Below, one piece after another: positions 5,417 to 47,369 of a stretch of 64,000 bases of DNA. Within the stretch, counting starts at the first letter, position 1. Each line of letters starts with the position of its first letter. The stretch is taken from positions 1,674,001-1,738,000 of the forward strand of contig JAPNXP010000014.1 of the NCBI GenBank assembly GCA_028753945.1, written 5' to 3'. The translations under genes were made by a program, and so were the position numbers. Source of the stretch: Hexactinellida sp. DTS-2022 (taxonomy: Eukaryota > Porifera > Hexactinellida). The notes under the pieces were generated by a model. The model had not been told where the DNA came from. It did not search any database and saw nothing but the letters and a program-made list of their open reading frames with translations.

Positions 5417-6138
5417 ATTTCACTTAGTAGCTAGCATAACCACAAGAAATCAATACAAATATGACAAACAGGAGTGTAATAATTCGTAAAACAGAATTTA
5501 TATGGAAATTCTACTTCGTTTTTACATTAAACTAATCGTATCGTGACCAAATACAAACATAATGGGTGTATAGTAAATAAAATTGAACATAAAAATAACT
5601 TGTGGTTGTTTAATAAGTTCCCATTCCACTGAATTCAGGTTCAAAAATATTATTCGATTGTGACGCCTGACATCAGTATGCTATGACATAATGATGCTAA
5701 CAATATACAATAATGAGGGGATCTATAGGGGACTAAAAATTTGCAAATCAAAGGCATATGAAAATGACTCGTTTAACCAGTCCATGGTCCAAAAGAAAAC
5801 ATGAGTGCCATTGCCTTAGTATATTAGAATGCTATGTCTATACAAATATGTAAATTTTAGCAAGTTCAATATTATTTATTTCCATAGCCTACTAAACATA
5901 AGGCCATTTCACTGAGCCAAATGCCCCTGGACCAGGAATAAGATGAAGGGGATTTTCTGTATACCCATAATGTAAACATATATATTTAGATTAAAACTAA
6001 AATGCTTATCTGGTTTAGAAATATAGTTAATGAGATTCGTCTATGTAAATATTAGCTATTCTGATTATAATTTATCTATAATTCAATCATACTTTGCCTT
6101 TATAATGCTAGCTCCTTGTTTATTTATATCCTGGAACC

Positions 6139-6808
6139 ATGCCCAACTCTTGTTCTGCTCCCAGGTGTGCTGCTGGATACTATAGTGATCATAGTGGTGT
6201 TGCAGTATTTCACATTCCTTCTGGCCCGCAAGACATCGTCCATAAGTGGAAACGTTTTCTGCATATAGATGGTGAGTATGACTTTACTAGTTGGACAAGC
6301 TAAATTAATTACTTTACCAGTTTTCCTTTAAGCTTAACATCACTTAAATACTTTAATTCATCATTACGTAATTATGTAATTATATGCTAGATCTTCACAG
6401 ACTTAAAAACATCTTCGTTTGTGCTAAACACTTTGATCCTGATGATATCATTGACACACAAACTTATCTTGACACTGATGGTCAAACGAAGATACGACCA
6501 ATAAAAACTACATTTAAGAAAGTCTCAGTATCTAAATACCTTCCTGGCGGCCCTGATCGTCTTAATGATCACACTATCAAGTATCAGCGGCTTGATACAT
6601 ACAAAAAGGAGCATGATTTACAGATCCAAGTATGTCAAGTTGTGCTAAATGTAAAAGTTTTGTATTTTAACATGTTGTACGTTATTGTATATAGGCAATG
6701 AAACAGAGTGTTGACTCGTACGAAGAGCAGAGAAAATTCACTGTATCTAAATTAGATTACATAATCACTGACATTAAGATCCCCAAGGATGTATTTTTGG
6801 CACCTTGA
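6139..6808 (+). CDS. THAP-finger protein, three exons, 161 aa
   Basis: Exons 6139-6271, 6391-6629 and 6695-6808, joined by GTGAGT/TAG and GTATGT/TAG introns with phase kept, stopping at TGA 6806-6808. The THAP finger (C2CH, DNA binding) is intact: C5 and C10 in SCSAPRC, W37 in HKWKRF, C55 and H58 in VCAKHF, then the VSKYLPG segment in place of the usual AVPT box. The last exon (KQSVDSYEEQRKFTVSKLDY) is short and the catalytic domain is absent, because the element is deleted and interrupted downstream. It could therefore make a stand-alone DNA-binding protein, like truncated P-element proteins that act as repressors. That role is inference. Splice sites were read by eye. Confidence 0.7.
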
Positions 6809-7477
6809 TACCACATTTATATTGTCAATATGACATCAGATACAGTAGTTATTTTAGTAAAAACATTATTATTATTGACAAGTTTCTTCAAGTTAAGTGT
6901 TATAATCGTGAAACCCTTGCGAATCACTCAATCAGCTGTATGTTTGAAAACCGATAGATATGGACATTGATTGATTAATCAACACTCTTGGAAGGGAGTT
7001 CGTCTCAAGGACCGAGATTCTTGCCACGTACACATAATGATGCCATATTTAATTGAATGTCTACTCTAGTTCGTTGGTTAGAGTCTGGGGAAGCTTGCCA
7101 GTTCATGAGGAAAATTAACAGTTCAAACCTTCACGAGATTTCACCATTCAAGTATTGCACTGCCTAAACATTTGGAATATTGACCTGCGAATGTGGAATT
7201 ACCTAAGTAGTATTGTCATCATTTATACAAATTGATCTTATTGAACACCATTTTGGATTATACAATCAGATGTAAAACTACAATGTATTGGTTTGTCAAG
7301 TCCTGGAAAATGAGAGGGCACTTAAACAGTCTAATATTCTCAAGTTGTATAATAGAAAAGATTATGTCCATAAAGATTGAGATTCGTTTATGGAATTTAT
7401 CAGCAGCTTCGAAACCCATGAAGATGGTCTTTATCGCAGCCATCCTGAGAATTTTGATATCACACATTATCTGTGTG

Positions 7478-9331
7478 GATTGGCGGACATTTCGTCCCTT
7501 GGACACTTCGTCCCCGGACAGTTCGTTCCGGACATTTCGTTCCCTGGACTTATTGTCCCAGGACATTTCGTTCCCTATTCGGAACAAATTTGTTTCACAA
7601 TATAAATATAGACGTAGCATAAACATGGAAACATATATTCTCTACAATTTTCATGGCCACTCCAAATGTTGTAATTGAAATACTGAAATCAAGCAGAGGA
7701 AAAGAAAAGGCTTACATAGATTGTTTTGTGTACACTCTAACTAAGTCTTGTTATCCACGCTTACATTGGCTCTGCGAAAACCGTGCAACCTGTAAAGCCC
7801 GTCTTTCTACAAAAGAAGGAGTTGTGATAAAACCTGAAAGTAGATCTGATATTCATTCATCTCACACCCATGGCCCAAATCCTATGCGAGCTGAGATAAT
7901 TAAAGGTCTCACTCAAATGAAAGAGCGAGCATTGAATTCTGAAAGCAGCACCAGGTCCATACTTGCTAGTGGATTGGAATTAATGAATGAGTCAAGTATA
8001 GCAGCACTACCTAAATTTGATTCAATAAAACGGACAATTCGTCGCTCAAAATCCAGAGCAGAGAATTTTAATAACTTGGCTACTGCCGGAGAAATTGTAA
8101 TCCCTGAAAAATATAAATTGACTTCGAAAGGACAGCAGTTCTTGCTATATGATTCAGGCATCCATGAAACGAGCAGACTGTTAGTATTTGGCACTCGTCA
8201 AATGCTCAATCTCTTACGGGACACAAGTGATTGGTATGCAGATGGTACATTTAAAGTTGTTCCCATTCAATTTTTCCAGTTATACACGATTCATTGCGAG
8301 AAAGATAGATACATCATTCCATGTGTATATGCACTGATGTCAAACAAGCTTCAATCAACATACGATGAACTACTCAAAAAATTGAAAGAAATCGAACCAG
8401 ACTTAGATCCATCATCAATCATGGTTGATTTTGAAAAGGCTCAACTTAATGCTCTAGAAGAAAACTTCATAGCTGTTGTATCTGGGTGTTTCTTTCATTT
8501 ATCGCAGAACATTTATCGTCAAATACAGTCGAAAGGTTTAACTGCACTATATCTTGAAGACGAAGAATTTGCAATAAAAATGAAAATGTTAGTAAGTCTA
8601 GCTTTTGTACCGGAGCATGACGTCATTGACTGTTTCACAATATTGATGGGAGATTTTCCGGAATCGGGTAAAGAGATAGCTCAATATTTTGAAGCTAATT
8701 ATATCGGTAAGAGAATTGTAGATCAAAGTAGACGAATACCACCCTTTCCGATTCGAATTTGGAATATGTTTACACGATTAAGATCCAGACTACTCCGAAC
8801 TAATAATTCAATTGAAGGGTGGCATAATGCTTTTAAATCTGGAATCACTTGTTCACACCCAAGTTTTATGAAGCTCTTAATGCACCTGCAACGTGAGCAA
8901 TCACTACAGGAGGCAAAGCTAGTTAGATGGGAAACTGGAGAAATGCCGAAAACTTCAAAACAGAGTGAATCAAGAAATCTCAGACTCCTGACATTAGTTG
9001 AAGATTACACCAATAGAGAAATTCTGACATATTTAAGAGGAATAGCGTATAACTTCGATTTCTAATATGGAAATTACACTTCTAAGTTCTAATACAATCT
9101 ATCCTTCACTTTTATCCTTCACTTTACTATCTATTACATTAAATTAACATATTATCTCACTACTTTTATCAATATTCTTGAATAATTAACACGTAATTAG
9201 ACGTCAGGGTGGTCGGGGAACAAAATGTCCAGGGAACGAAATGTCCTGGGAACGAAATGTCCTGGGACAATAAGTCCAGGGAACGAAATGTCCAGGGACG
9301 AAGTGTCCAAGAGACGAATTGTCCGTTACCC
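7478..9331 (+). mobile_element. Complete FLYWCH-MULE transposon
   Basis: A 1,854-bp element flanked by a perfect 9-bp duplication ATCTGTGTG (7469-7477 and 9332-9340), the size expected for Mutator-like elements. Ends GATTGGCGGACATTTCGTC (left) and, read inward from the right, GGGTAACGGACAATTCGTC. Each terminal repeat (about 7478-7575 and 9212-9331) is itself a tandem run of ~14-bp GGACATTTCGTTCC units. It contains one intact ORF at 7653-9065. The P-type host sequence reads through when the element and one duplication are removed. Confidence 0.93.
7653..9065 (+). CDS. MULE transposase with FLYWCH-like finger, 470 aa
   Basis: Uninterrupted single-exon ORF. N-terminal FLYWCH-type zinc finger: C41 and C47 in WLCENRATC, H71 and H73 in SSHTHGP. 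MULE transposase core with all three expected acidic residues: D197 in YADGTFK, D259 in MVDFEKA and E388 in NNSIEGWHNAFK, plus the CFFHLSQ motif (C279, H282). This is the DDE nuclease that cuts and joins transposon ends, acting in the nucleus. The start at 7653 lies about 80 bp inside the left terminal repeat. Length is that of a short but complete MULE protein. With no stops, all catalytic residues and a perfect target duplication, it is probably recently inserted and may be active. Confidence 0.92.
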   Translation: MATPNVVIEILKSSRGKEKAYIDCFVYTLTKSCYPRLHWLCENRATCKARLSTKEGVVIKPESRSDIHSSHTHGPNPMRAEIIKGLTQMKERALNSESSTRSILASGLELMNESSIAALPKFDSIKRTIRRSKSRAENFNNLATAGEIVIPEKYKLTSKGQQFLLYDSGIHETSRLLVFGTRQMLNLLRDTSDWYADGTFKVVPIQFFQLYTIHCEKDRYIIPCVYALMSNKLQSTYDELLKKLKEIEPDLDPSSIMVDFEKAQLNALEENFIAVVSGCFFHLSQNIYRQIQSKGLTALYLEDEEFAIKMKMLVSLAFVPEHDVIDCFTILMGDFPESGKEIAQYFEANYIGKRIVDQSRRIPPFPIRIWNMFTRLRSRLLRTNNSIEGWHNAFKSGITCSHPSFMKLLMHLQREQSLQEAKLVRWETGEMPKTSKQSESRNLRLLTLVEDYTNREILTYLRGIAYNFDF

Positions 9332-10084
9332 ATCTGTGTGTGTGGCCACTCTTTTAAAGTTTTTCCTGAATTCATACACAAGACAACCTCTAGCTTTTAT
9401 CGGAGGATATGCTGCCAATCTTATTAAGGAAATTGTCTAAAATCCCATATTTGTACCCGGTTGTTGTTCAGTACTCAGTGAAAATATATGGAATTGAATG
9501 GAAATTGAAGACCCGGATTTTGTCTTTTGCCTTTTGCCTTGATTGGCCTTTTTGATCGCGGCTGCTTAAAATGGCCCTACCAATTACGTGCTAAATGTGG
9601 TGTTTCTCCTTGGAAAGTGTTTACAATAATGTTTTCAATCGGATTCAAGCAACTCCTCCTAAAACTTGATAGTGAAAAGTGCGAAGACTTCGTTGATGAG
9701 TGAATAGATTGCTTAGTACAAAAGGAAAATCAATTTATTACTTTAAATTTTAACAATAATAGCCAATTGTTACTTAACAAGAACAAGGCAAAGAACCATA
9801 ATGTTCCTACTACCTGCCCCAAAGAAACTGATAAGAAATTCCTCTAAATATTTGCTTAGTTTTCACATTTCTACTATCTAGTTTGCATGTAATAATATAC
9901 TTGAGCTTGAATTTATGTTGGGAGACAACTATGAACCATATATACTACTTTGATATGTGTAGTTGATATAATGAGTCTAGTATTAATCTGGTAATTGGTT
10001 ACAGTTAGAAAAATAAATCCGCCTTTATCTTATCGCTGGTCCAAAGCAGTGAAATAGCATTTATATAGTAGGCTATGTTATTTC

Positions 10085-36765: not shown

Positions 36766-37250
36766 TTATCTAGTTTAGTTTCTGTAGATTGATAAGAATA
36801 CTTGGATAAATATTTAAGTCCTTCTTTAATACATACAGGCCAGATATAAGTTTGAAATGTGTTTAATTGAGTGTAAGGTTACTAATATAGATAATTAATT
36901 GGGTCAACTTTCCTCGGACCTATTCAAAGTCCACTGTATTATAATTTAGATATTGATTGCTTGTCTATACTTTGTAATGTGACTTGTCTCAAACTGTCTA
37001 AATAATACTATTATCTGGAAATTTGTTAATTAAATATGCTGACTGGCTCTCAGTTAAGTTTACCGTAGTTACTCAAATAGCAGTCGGATTGATTATTTAT
37101 TATTGGATTAATAGTTTGTCCGTCCGCGTAAAAATTTAATACAGGGAGCATCATTTAGGACTATCAAATTATGACGCTAAAATCTATTAAAAATTTCTTA
37201 TTTACATATGTAATTTTTGACCACATACCATTTAGACTGGAATATTTGAT
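36766..37250. other. Upstream region of the TIP30-like gene
   Basis: AT-rich, no repeat recognised. A possible splice acceptor (CATACCATTTAG, ending at about 37232) lies just before the start codon, so a 5' UTR intron is possible. No convincing TATA box can be singled out. Confidence 0.4.
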
Positions 37251-39035
37251 ATGGCTGAATCAGATATACCAACAGTTGACATTCTTATGAAGCAAGAGTC
37301 ATTGGATAACGATGTTGAACCTAAGTCAAAGCCTAGAGTTGAACAATCACCAGCTGCATCAACTGGTAACATTAGTGTAGTAGTGATAGGCGCGACAGGT
37401 GTGACCGGCAGGTATGTGGTGGCAGAGCTGCTGCTCTGTCCTGAGATAGCCAATGTGCGGGTAGTGACGCGTAGGAAGTACGAGGTTCCGCGGGAATACG
37501 CTAACTCTGTGATAGTGTCAAATGCTGCAAAAGAAGGGAAGCTAGTGGAGCATATCGTGGATTTGGAGACAGTGAGTGGTGAGGAGCTGAAAACTATCTT
37601 CGAAGGAGTACACACATTCTTCAACTGTTTGGGCTCTACCAGAAGTAAGGCGGGATCTAAAGAACGGTTTATCCAGATAGATATGGAAATACCAGTTCAA
37701 TTTGCACAAACAGCCAAAGAGCAGGGAGTGAAGCACACCAGTCTGCTAACATCTGCTAGAGCTAATGAAAAGTCCGTCATGTTTTATTTCAAAGTGAAAG
37801 GTCTAATTGAGAATGCTTTCCGTAATCTTGAATTCCCAGCTCTTTCCATATTCAGACCGGGTCTGTTGGGCCGTAAAGAGCAGATGAAGTTTGGTGAGAA
37901 AATGTTCAGCCTGTTTCAAATCCCTCTCCAGACAGATGATTTAGCTCGTGCTATGGTACAGGACTGTTTGAATATTATCAGAGGTTTGGATACACATCTC
38001 AACCCACTGTACACTAATCCACAAATAAAAGCTATGAACACTGAACGATTGAAAGAACTACGTTCACTCACCAACCCTTATCTTGAGAATCCTGAATATA
38101 ACGAAGATGATACTGGAGTGGTACCACCTGTTGTGATGGAATACTCACAAGAGCGGAATGAATCAGGCAGTATTAAAGCAACTAGAGATAATCCTATTGA
38201 CTCTGTAACAACTGGTGAAAGTAACAGTTCTGAGAAACCTATAGGTGATTTCATCCCTGCTGCTTGTAATGATGTTCCAATTTTAGCTGAAAATACCAAT
38301 ATTGATGGAATTGATTCTGGGTTGAATAAATCTGTTGAGGTGGAATCTATCGCTGTGAAACCAGATATTGTAGAAGAGGAAATTGGTACTACTGTTGAAG
38401 TTATCACAATCACAGATCCAGAAAAGGTTACTGAACCTATAATTCGTACTATTACAGAGTCTATTGAACCTACTACAGATACCACAGAGCCTATTTCACA
38501 GGCTACTGAACATATTACAAAGTCTACTATAATTATAGAGACTACTGAACCCATTATACAGAGTAATGAATCTACTACATATTTTTTTGAGCCTAGTATA
38601 GAGCCTATCCCATTGCCTACTGCACCTATTTCTGAAACTACTGAACCATGTACATATACTATTGAACCTATGATACAGACTCCTGAGTCTAATTCAGAAA
38701 CTGGAAAAGTGAAAGATACAGTTACAAACGACTCCTTTTTTGCGCCAAATAAGTCAATTCATTCTGATCCTGACATAACTCCCACACCAATGTCACCTGG
38801 TTCTATCCAGGCTCTAGAGCAGGGTATATCCCCGAGCAGTGACAGGCTACAGCCAGAGGATGTAACTCTACCGGAATGTGACATTTCTAAAGATCCTAAC
38901 TTCTCTGCTGGAGACACGGACGTGACCAGTCCTTCAACTAAACCGGACACAACAAATTCTTCATTTCAGACAGCTAACAGCTCTGACGCTAGTGACCCGA
39001 TCACTCCTCAAGCCCCAGATACTAACAGCCCTTAG
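37251..39035 (+). CDS. HTATIP2: TIP30/HTATIP2-like reductase with long acidic Thr-rich tail
   Basis: 594-aa open frame. Residues 1-40 are a low-complexity leader. Residues 42-250 match atypical SDR proteins of the HTATIP2 (TIP30/CC3) family: nucleotide-binding GATGVTG (47-53), NCLGSTRSKAG (126-136), LLTSA with S169, YFKVKG with Y180 and K184 as the Y-x3-K pair, and IFRPG (201-205). The family binds NADPH and has been linked to nuclear transport, transcription and growth control. The family domain is about 240 aa. Here another ~330 residues follow, rich in Thr, Glu, Pro and Ser, with repeated TEPI/IEPT-type motifs around residues 395-480. That part looks disordered or mucin-like, and I know of no such tail in vertebrate TIP30. 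It is the only clearly intact host gene in the window. The stop codon overlaps a strong splice donor, so the true C-terminus may differ. Confidence 0.85.
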   Translation: MAESDIPTVDILMKQESLDNDVEPKSKPRVEQSPAASTGNISVVVIGATGVTGRYVVAELLLCPEIANVRVVTRRKYEVPREYANSVIVSNAAKEGKLVEHIVDLETVSGEELKTIFEGVHTFFNCLGSTRSKAGSKERFIQIDMEIPVQFAQTAKEQGVKHTSLLTSARANEKSVMFYFKVKGLIENAFRNLEFPALSIFRPGLLGRKEQMKFGEKMFSLFQIPLQTDDLARAMVQDCLNIIRGLDTHLNPLYTNPQIKAMNTERLKELRSLTNPYLENPEYNEDDTGVVPPVVMEYSQERNESGSIKATRDNPIDSVTTGESNSSEKPIGDFIPAACNDVPILAENTNIDGIDSGLNKSVEVESIAVKPDIVEEEIGTTVEVITITDPEKVTEPIIRTITESIEPTTDTTEPISQATEHITKSTIIIETTEPIIQSNESTTYFFEPSIEPIPLPTAPISETTEPCTYTIEPMIQTPESNSETGKVKDTVTNDSFFAPNKSIHSDPDITPTPMSPGSIQALEQGISPSSDRLQPEDVTLPECDISKDPNFSAGDTDVTSPSTKPDTTNSSFQTANSSDASDPITPQAPDTNSP

Positions 39036-44459: not shown

Positions 44460-47129
44460 TTGAAAATTGAACCAATGGTGGAGCGGCACACTTATGGAAG
44501 TTTGTGCTAGATTCTCTATCTCTTGGCAGCGATCAGAGCAACAATTTCCATGCCTGCATGACATAAATACCCAAGTTTCCAGTCGTGGTCCAAGACGTAC
44601 AATATATTGGTTCCCCATTGTTGGAGCATCATCGCTCTCACCTTCATCTTCAGAACTACTTGAGAATGCATCTTGAGTACTCACCAAAGCTGGGCACTAA
44701 TCCGTTAATCCGTTAATCGTTAATTAACGGAAGTTAAATTTTTCGTTAACGATTAACTTTTAGTTAACTTTGAAATCGTTAACGGACTTAATTAACTTCC
44801 GTTACATTTACAAGTCCGTTAATAGTCCGTTAACGCATTTATGAATTATTGATAGTTTCTATTACAATAACCGAACAAATGTTTTTGAACAACAGGAATT
44901 TTATCCCACGCACAATGTGCTTCTTGTAGCGTATTATCGGCTGTTTAACCTACTTTGGAAGACTTTAAATATCTTGCTATAGTTATAAACTTCATAAACT
45001 TTCGATTTTAAGTATTTTTTTTCCAATATCCATGAATACGTGTCCCTCAAATGGGAATGTAACTGTATTTCAGTGGAAAAGAATCGCAATGGTTAGAAAA
45101 TAAGCACCTATAGTATTCGATCATGTGGTATTCAAATCTGAAATCAGAATTTGTATATTCTAATTCTCTCATAATGATCATAAGTTGTATATTTCATTAC
45201 TTATTTTATAATTAATGAGTTTATATGTAAATTTTATAATAAAATGTAAATTAAAATTGTTTTGGTCAACTTATCGTTTTATGTAAACATCAATGTTGAC
45301 GCATCTACAAATGTTATTATCGTTCTAGAATGTATGAATACAATTATTCTTGTTTAAATACTTTTGACCGTTTAGTGCATTTTTAGATTTTCAATAGTGA
45401 CATTCATGTGAATTTGAATCTTATATCTATATTAGTCAACATCCCTGTCTGATGAAAACTTTGACATGTTATTTTTCATGAAGGGAAACATGCGTTTCAT
45501 GGAATTTTCTCAACACTCCTTCTAAGATCCCTTAAACAGCTTATTTCCCTTATTATTCGCTGATTATACGATATAAAGGTTGTGCTAGCATAAATCTTAG
45601 CTTGAATCACCCAACAAAGGAACATTTTATAGTTAGAGCACTTTTTGAGATGTCTTATAGCAAAAAAACAAATTTTGTTGTTGTTTGTATAATATAAATT
45701 AACTGTAACGGATTAACGTTAACTTCCGTTACATTTTTAACGTATTAACGGATTAACTGTTAAAGAAGTTAACTTTTTGGTTAACGGATTAACGATTAAC
45801 GAAGTTAACTTTTTGATTAACTGTGCCCACCTTTGGTACTCACAACATTGCCAGTTGTATGGCTCATAGCTTTCAGAAATTATAATGGATTGTATACTCC
45901 ATCTTTGAGTTTCTGTTTACATTTCATCCTATCTTCATCGTGTTTTAAGTCCTTCTTCCTTGGCCTACTGATTTCCCTTCCCTCGCGCAATCTACCAATG
46001 TCATTATCAGTGTCCTCTATTATTTGATTAATTGATTCCATAAAGGTCCATATTCGTGGATGACAGGTTTTTACTATAGATTTTATTTTGGAATGGTAAG
46101 ATTCAGCTGCATTGTAGTTAGATCATATATTGATAGTTCCTGCGGTGTAACTTGCCTTAGCCAACGTGTTTTGAGATATACTTGCAACTTTTCCAATTTC
46201 GACCTTTCGGAATGATGTCTGTTGGAATTTGAAGGAGACTAGCTGTGGGATATATTAGAGCTTTTGGAAAAAATGGTATTGCCATTAGTTGTCTTATTTA
46301 AGTAGTTGTCTGTAATTCATTACGTAACCTTGGCTCAATCCAAGCTTCTGTGCTTTGGCCCATATCCGTTGAGTATAATGGAACCAGCAGCAATACATCT
46401 TGATTTCCGGGTACACAGCTTAAATTCATTTCTGGCTGCTGCTTCCCAATCAGACATCGTAGCAAGAGGTCGGAACAGAGGGACTACATTCGCAATTTTT
46501 CCCAAAACTGCTTTGTATAAATCTTGACTTTTCGATGACATTAAGCTGGATTGCTGGTAGACTGTGACGCCCAACTGGAACAAATATAGTCCATAGTTTA
46601 AAAAACTGTTTGGGTACCGTGAAAAAGTTCCATAATATTGCCGTTTGTAATTTCTGCTAAAAACATACTCATCTGATCAGAATAGAATACTGCTGCAATT
46701 TTGATCTCCAGATCTTGCAGTGAATTTGAAATATTCCTTATACTGAGTTGTAGGGAGCATGTCAATAAATTCGTTTGCTGTTAATGGGATTTTAGGCTGT
46801 ATCATCCTTCTAGCTCGATACATCGATGACTCACATTCCGGAAAAGAGATATGATTCGCACCAGGATGTCTTCTAGTCACATCATCGAACACCATTCTCA
46901 AATTTGTTTGGGTACTTTTGTGAACAGATTTACATTTCGTTTTAAGTTGATAAACTTGAGTCTTGTAAAGCTCAACACTGTGATCGTGATTTTTCAAGGG
47001 AGTGATTGGATTTGTTTCTCTGTTCAACCTGTTCTTGCCTCGGCAACCGGTTCGAAATATAGCGCACTTCAGGTAGATATAATTCTCCATAGGTTTAGAT
47101 TGGACATACTTGTTTGAAGTTGTTTCCAT
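44460..47129 (-). pseudogene. MULE transposase, FLYWCH type, interrupted
   Basis: Reading down from 47129: FLYWCH-like finger (YLKCAIFRTGCRGKNR ... NHDHS; C and H ligands present); a linker; GTFSRYPNSFLNYGLYLFQL near 46600, where the first catalytic Asp of the usual DGTF motif is not seen (YYGTF); VVPLFRPLATMSDWEAAARN at about 46440, with the second Asp kept; NYNAAESYHSKIKS near 46110, with Glu kept; then an acidic tail (SSSSEDEGESDD, 44640). The last part is separated by the hAT MITE at 44685-45835. Frame changes occur between segments, so it is not a working gene as it stands. Confidence 0.75.
44685..45835. mobile_element. hAT element, 1,151 bp, CAAAGCTGGGCACTAATCC ends
   Basis: Ends CAAAGCTGGGCACTAATCCG and TGTGCCCACCTTTG; perfect 8-bp duplication GTACTCAC (44677-44684 and 45836-45843). 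Arms are dense GTTAACG/CGTTAAT repeats; the 800-bp core is AT-rich with no ORF. Confidence 0.92.
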
Positions 47130-47369
47130 CAGGAGTATAAAAGATGTTGCCTGAGGTTCGTTTATATTCTTCTCTAGTGTATTCCATCTTGTTTCAAAGA
47201 AAACAAATTGATTTTATTTATATATGTTGATAAGTTGGTTTTAGAACCGCAAAACCATATTCAAACTTGCATTTGAAAAACAATCAGGAGTATAAATTTA
47301 ATAACAATAGAATGATATAGTGTCAAAAAACAATAAGAGTATAAAATGATTTAGTGTCAAATAACAATC

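What the first reader, a model, noticed from the sequence alone, without database searches (positions are those of the whole stretch)
7478..9331. Complete, possibly active FLYWCH-MULE inside a P-type transposase
Seen: perfect 9-bp duplication, an uninterrupted 470-aa transposase with all three acidic residues (D197, D259, E388) and a FLYWCH-like finger, and readable P-type host sequence on both sides. The other MULE copies in the window are broken. Low decay suggests recent movement.
Basis: partly seen in the sequence, partly recalled or inferred. Interest (0 to 1): 0.72.

Follow-up and report, generated by a model that had tools for sequence, protein, structure and literature searches.

The report
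Intact-looking Phantom-type jumping gene copy
This is a real, cleanly inserted jumping gene of a known animal family (Phantom/Mutator-like) sitting inside the remains of another jumping gene; its protein reads through without a break, but a sister group elsewhere in the same genome, not this copy, shows the clearest signs of having moved recently.

Summary
A 1,854-bp element (7478-9331) between perfect 9-bp duplications carries a 470-aa open frame with Pfam FLYWCH and MULE domains, D197/D259/E388, and the CxxH and W residues that the active relative Muta1 needs. It lies in an internally deleted P-type element; 13 of 14 other host loci examined align through the site without an insert. 'Complete and possibly active' is only partly supported. 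(1) It lacks about 120 bp between the left terminal repeats and the ORF: 92 bp here, 211 bp or more in 23 of 23 other measurable copies. (2) Its protein differs at two residues (24, 219) that are glycine in 11 of 11 other copies compared. (3) Its nearest relatives differ by 2-5% in the coding region and are broken. It is, however, the least decayed of the five subfamily copies put in a tree. The best sign of recent movement is a sister subfamily: five copies of 1,964 bp, 1-6 differences pairwise, all with open frames and perfect 9-bp duplications. The architecture is that of Phantom MULEs with Foldback-like ends (Tm1, Muta1): a new member of a known kind. A modest extra: the two ends carry different 7-bp motifs, and the coding interior faces the other way in two subfamilies.

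The parts
7469..7477 (.). left copy of the 9-bp target site duplication ATCTGTGTG
   Evidence: other host loci run through the site without an insert
7478..7484 (+). left terminal 7-bp motif GATTGGC (GAATGGC type)
7485..7576 (+). left terminal repeat: 6 tandem units of 15-16 bp, GGACATTTCGTCCCT type
7601..7607 (+). TATA-like box 52 bp upstream of the ATG, kept although the upstream block is missing
   Evidence: aligned stretch in L002 and L003
7653..9065 (+). 470-aa FLYWCH-MULE transposase ORF (stop codon included); D197, D259, E388; C279-x-x-H282; W370
9216..9324 (-). right terminal repeat: 7 tandem units of 15-16 bp
9325..9331 (-). right terminal 7-bp motif (read inward GGGTAAC, GGTAATC type)
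9332..9340 (.). right copy of the 9-bp target site duplication
6127..7477 (+). left part of the host: matches to the THAP part (6127-6647) and C-terminal part (7012-7437) of P-type transposases; internally deleted P-type element
9341..9631 (+). right part of the host: continuation of the P-type C-terminal part (matches at 9381-9631)

Best explanation
The feature is one copy of a Phantom-type Mutator-like DNA transposon with Foldback-like composite ends. Shown: it sits between 9-bp target duplications in a copy of an internally deleted P-type element family whose other copies lack the insert, and it is the least decayed of the five subfamily copies compared. Inferred: the FLYWCH finger binds the 15-16-bp units arrayed at both ends, the RNase-H-like DDE core cuts the element out and joins it to staggered target cuts, and repair makes the 9-bp duplication (cut and paste, as shown in yeast for Muta1). 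This copy lacks about 120 bp of left subterminal sequence and has two private changes at residues that are glycine in the other copies compared, so today it is more likely a passive or weakened copy than a driver. The recently mobile members are a sister subfamily of five nearly identical open copies, which could in principle act on related ends in trans (inference; the ends are similar, not identical).
For: Exact ends, duplication and ORF. Other host loci: 13 of 14 align through the site in one piece with no insert; three of them (L018, L024, L016) differ from the target 9-mer at one base. Domain order and key residues as in active Muta1: CxxH, and a W exactly 18 residues before E (focal C279/H282, W370, E388). 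Low dN against dS between subfamilies (focal against L025 0.138 and 1.04; against L005 0.129 and 0.858) and similar dN and dS within them: a family spread by functional transposases whose copies then decay. Sister subfamily: five copies of 1,964 bp, 1-6 differences in all 10 pairs, 5 of 5 perfect 9-bp duplications, 5 of 5 open frames; no sixth copy (40 of 217 candidates scored; next body matches 85-88%). One of the five sits inside a copy of the focal subfamily (L029).
Against: No transcript, polymorphism or assay data. The fold was not predicted: five submissions met a busy machine. The missing left block may be dispensable, since a TATA-like box and the whole ORF remain, so the copy could still be autonomous. 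The two private changes were not tested for effect. None of the 13 uninterrupted host loci has the exact target 9-mer: several have gaps of 2-6 bases or a GT run at the site. dN/dS of focal against L002 and L003 is about 0.6, so weak constraint is not excluded.
Confidence: 0.82

Rival explanations
1. The focal copy is itself autonomous and currently active; the missing left block is dispensable.
For: Open 470-aa frame with counterparts of the D, D, E, H and W residues needed in Muta1; perfect 9-bp duplication, and donor-site duplications favour excision of Muta1; TATA-like box kept; shortest branch of the five subfamily copies in the tree.
Against: No near-identical relative (nearest coding identity 97.9%, broken); two private changes at residues that are glycine in 11 of 11 other copies; about 120 bp missing on the left; private changes 5 non-synonymous to 2 synonymous, no sign of constraint, though counts are small.
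Confidence: 0.15
2. The transposase is kept as a host gene (domesticated) rather than as a transposon.
For: Uninterrupted ORF; FLYWCH factors derived from Mutator transposases are reported in animals, expanded in ctenophores (passages of PMC10027918).
Against: Both ends and the target duplication are intact; the copy is young and its private changes show no constraint.
Confidence: 0.02
3. A chance open frame in a long-dead copy.
For: After 7-11 random substitutions the frame stays stop-free in 68-54% of simulations (indels not simulated).
Against: Little divergence on its branch (0.0076) and a perfect duplication point to a young copy rather than a long-dead one.
Confidence: 0.1

Closest known systems
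Tm1 (Meloidogyne root-knot nematodes; Phantom subclass; PMC3169594, passages read)
   Same: FLYWCH at the N-terminus plus MULE domain in one ORF of similar size (496 aa), composite Foldback-like ends with 13-15-bp tandem units, different 7-bp motifs at the two extreme ends, 8-10-bp (mostly 9-bp) duplications.
   Different: Repeat units and terminal motifs differ in sequence; the Tm1 authors judge their family inactive and decaying, whereas here a sister subfamily has five open, nearly identical copies. Sequence relationship to Tm1 could not be computed (its protein is not held).
Muta1 (Aedes aegypti, shown active in yeast; PMC5225508, abstract and passages read)
   Same: FLYWCH plus DDE, 504 aa, CxxH histidine, a tryptophan 18 residues before the glutamate, 8-9-bp duplications; 10 of the 12 mosquito families with long TIRs have short subterminal tandem repeats.
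   Different: Different host; activity of the present element untested; the focal copy lacks part of its left region. A further Muta1 residue named as potentially important (E373) was not examined here.
Phantom family, group 20 of the 2019 MULE survey (PMC6446971, passages read)
   Same: Animal hosts, 8-10-bp duplications, TIR 18-613 bp or none, one or two ORFs, FLYWCH in some.
   Different: The survey's main text does not contain 'sponge' or 'Porifera'. Placement of this element in that tree was not testable here. The founding paper (Marquez and Pritham 2010) is not held and is known to me only through citing papers and recall.

Membership tests
Mutator-like (MULE) superfamily | MULE transposase domain | tested here: met
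   PF10551 44.9 bits against cut-off 27.6
Mutator-like (MULE) superfamily | DDE triad with CxxH and a W before the E | tested here: met
   D197, D259, E388, C279/H282, W370, set beside Muta1 D214, D283, E419, H307, W401 as read; no alignment to Muta1 was possible
Mutator-like (MULE) superfamily | 8-10-bp target site duplication | tested here: met
   9 bp at the focal copy; of 25 family copies whose ends were examined, 10 have a perfect 8-10-bp duplication at natural ends, 2 one with one mismatch, 13 none or unclear (L039, L040, L044 and the outer copy of L029 were left out)
Mutator-like (MULE) superfamily | RNase-H-like fold of the catalytic core | not tested
   Structure prediction was busy in five tries
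Phantom | N-terminal FLYWCH finger | tested here: met
   PF04500 model positions 2-62 of 62, over cut-off, in focal, L033 and L025; L007, frame-shifted at its start, has no match. Among solved structures only FLYWCH1 (2rpr, E 0.023) fits, weakly; the other hit, a galanin receptor (E 0.42), is taken as chance
Phantom | transposase groups with named Phantom transposases in a tree | not testable with these tools
   no named reference sequence was found in what is held; viral contigs gave no relative (two peptide patterns, 75 stretches, none confirmed)
Foldback-like ends | inverted repeats composed of short tandem units | tested here: met
   6 and 7 units of 15-16 bp; one pair of 46-bp arms 100% complementary
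autonomous active copy | complete element with near-identical siblings | tested here: not met
   left block missing; nearest relatives 94-95% over the matched part and broken
autonomous active copy | expression and insertion polymorphism | not testable with these tools
   no reads, one genome

The most novel reading that the evidence does not exclude
The genome, probably of a non-bilaterian animal, carries a living Phantom family whose interior has repeatedly been turned round between two fixed, different ends. In the 19 copies where both ends were seen, a GAATGGC-type motif marks one end and a GGTAATC- or GGG(T/A)AAC-type motif the other, but the transposase gene faces the other way in the five-copy subfamily and in L025/L026 compared with the focal copy, L002, L003, L005, L006, L008, L036-L038 and L041-L043. 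This would mean that the transposase needs one end of each kind while recombination between the inverted repeats turns everything inside, and that an inverted form seeded the latest burst.
Probability: 0.4. Interest if true: 0.42.

Novelty: new member of a known kind. Interest (0 to 1): 0.27.

Why it matters
Mutator-like elements shown to move experimentally are few outside plants (the Muta1 paper of 2017 calls itself the first such report in a heterologous system). A compact 1.96-kb family with five open, nearly identical copies would be a good candidate for another, and its two unlike ends offer a way to ask which end motif the FLYWCH finger and the catalytic core need. The focal copy itself is an ordinary, slightly incomplete member.

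Tried and rejected
Organism: 18 contigs and 112 Mb suggested Xenoturbella bocki (recall), but a search with an Antennapedia-type homeodomain gave only three hits at 45-46% identity, which I read as NK-like (recall); a sponge is suspected but unproven, and no taxon is claimed. A cysteine-peptidase search for silicatein gave nothing clear.

Viral relatives: none confirmed in viral contigs (two peptide patterns only). Weak repeat pairs inside the ORF were taken as chance. Folding the left terminal repeat as single-stranded DNA was not convincingly better than shuffles (z -1.36, 16 of 200 shuffles as good), so no hairpin role is claimed.

Non-coding relatives: the terminus pattern GAATGGCGGACANNTCGTC has 42 exact matches against 0 for the reversed control. 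24 of the 42 lie more than 3.5 kb from all 50 coding-body matches that I entered. Those two searches scored only 40 candidates each, so coding copies may have been missed, and I could not read the 24 places.

Full report
Observation. The element occupies 7478-9331, between two perfect copies of ATCTGTGTG (7469-7477 and 9332-9340), the only two in the window. Pfam finds FLYWCH at 11-73 and MULE at 195-286, both over their cut-offs. The ends are inverted repeats built of 15-16-bp units of the GGACATTTCGTCCCT type: six on the left, seven on the right, with one pair of 46-bp arms fully complementary.

Host. Eight P-type loci of the same genome (L065-L072, found; some of them with open frames of 800-1,000 codons) were used as protein queries. 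They match the left flank at 6127-6647 (the THAP part) and 7012-7437, and the right flank at 9381-9631. Pfam by itself gives only a sub-threshold THAP match in the left flank. About 500 residues in the middle of the P-type protein have no counterpart; in L065 the RNase-H-like domain lies at residues 172-295, outside the stretch matched in the host (464-600). The flanks belong to a repeat family whose scored copies are mostly about 90% identical (40 candidates scored in each). So the host is an internally deleted P-type element. Of 14 other host loci examined (L010-L016, L018-L024), 13 align through the insertion point in one piece with no insert, and L012 is interrupted there. Three (L018, L024, L016) differ from the target 9-mer at one base; the rest have small gaps or a GT run there. 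This is good evidence of insertion.

Relatives in the same genome. A DNA search with the element gave 130 matches (40 of 162 candidates scored). L002 and L003 (94-95% over the matched part), the fragment L004 and the outer copy in L029 form one subfamily with the focal copy (100/100 support, unresolved inside). Further fragments such as L027 were not put in the tree. Both full-length relatives have broken frames. Coding identity to the focal copy is 97.9% (L002), 96.6% (L003), 94.9% (L004, partial) and 97.0% (L029 outer, partial). Private changes judged against other subfamilies: focal 7 of 1,410 sites, L002 12 of 1,401, L003 23 of 1,395, L004 23 of 790, L029 outer 10 of 768. The focal copy is thus the least decayed of the five.

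What the focal copy lacks. From the ORF start to the start of the innermost left repeat unit the focal copy has 92 bp; the 23 other copies that could be measured have 211-384 bp, L002 and L003 219 (which refines). Five copies could not be measured: L004 and L007 show no units in the stretch held, and L027, L028 and L030 lack the ORF start. The alignment with L002 and L003 shows the gap directly. At residues 24 (inside the FLYWCH domain) and 219 (inside the MULE domain) the focal protein differs from 11 of 11 other copies compared, all of which have glycine. L007, not among the 11, is frame-shifted around residue 24 and differs there too. Whether either change matters was not tested.

The recent mover. 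L029 (inner copy), L031, L032, L033 and L034 are 1,964 bp each and differ at 1-6 positions in all ten pairs; all five have perfect 9-bp duplications and a 485-codon stop-to-stop frame, which gives 470 aa from the ATG (L031, L033; L033 also passes Pfam FLYWCH and MULE). A search with one of them found no sixth such copy; the next body matches are 85% over most of the length and 88% over parts (40 of 217 candidates scored). The protein is 66% identical to the focal one. One of the five inserted into a copy of the focal subfamily. Other subfamilies also have short end branches: L005-L008 0.0007-0.0029 and L035/L036 0.0014-0.0036, but their frames carry breaks in this assembly; L007 has a nearly full frame that is shifted at its start.

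Selection. Between subfamilies dN is far below dS (focal against L005 0.129 and 0.858; against L025 0.138 and 1.04; dS is saturated against L031 and not computable against L036). Within subfamilies they are closer: focal against L002 0.017 and 0.029, against L003 0.031 and 0.047; L005 against L008 0.011 and 0.012; L035 against L036 0.0056 and 0.0034. The family was therefore spread by functional transposases, while individual copies decay. The focal copy's open frame is not by itself evidence of activity: with 7-11 random substitutions 68-54% of simulated frames stay free of stops.

Two unlike ends. In the 19 copies where I saw both ends (L001-L003, L005, L006, L008, L025, L026, L029 inner, L031-L034, L036-L038, L041-L043), one end has a GAATGGC-type motif and the other a GGTAATC-, GGGTAAC- or GGGAAAC-type motif, with small variations, outside the inverted repeat (the left end of L026 is judged from its match). 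In the focal copy, L002, L003, L005, L006, L008, L036-L038 and L041-L043 the ORF start lies by the GAATGGC end, and so does the one end seen in L035. In L029 (inner), L031-L034, L025 and L026 it lies by the other end. L041, the closest long relative of the five-copy group (85%), has the common orientation. At least two inversions of the interior are the simplest account; this is inference from end motifs, not a demonstrated event. Unlike 7-bp end motifs outside the inverted repeat are also described for Tm1.

Comparison with the known. The architecture is that of Phantom elements with Foldback-like ends: Tm1 and Muta1, which excises and reinserts in yeast. The five Muta1 residues whose change to alanine abolished or nearly abolished activity in the passages read (D, D, E, H, W) have counterparts here at similar spacing; a sixth, E373, was not examined. 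Formal placement in the Phantom clade was not testable. The 2019 survey's main text does not contain 'sponge' or 'Porifera'. In two library searches with Mutator or Phantom plus sponge terms (listings and starts of abstracts, of which I opened only passages of PMC10027918 and PMC3169594) I saw no description of such an element in a sponge; as the host is not identified, I claim no first report.

Verdict. The element is a new member of a known kind, slightly incomplete, and probably not the driver of current activity; a sister subfamily is the better candidate.

Noticed in passing
G000 genome-wide; L065-L072: P-type transposases (TNP-like RNase H domain) are very abundant: 150 matches scored of 928 candidates, many in open frames of about 940-1,040 codons, several with identical scores, which suggests a large recent P-type expansion.
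   Followed up: partly
L050, minus strand: A 252-residue open stretch that reads like a MULE C-terminal half followed by a RING-type finger (by eye, no domain search).
   Followed up: no
window 46677-47213, minus strand: A 178-aa open frame that looks FLYWCH-like by eye but has no Pfam match at E 0.01.
   Followed up: partly
window 37236-39035, plus strand: A 599-aa open frame with NmrA and NAD-dependent epimerase matches over their cut-offs, probably an ordinary host gene with a long repetitive tail.
   Followed up: no
L003, around the left end of the element copy: A short inverted duplicate of the terminal motif (TTGTCCGCCAATC) sits just outside the left end, a possible aberrant end or recombination product.
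   Followed up: no
   Followed up: partly
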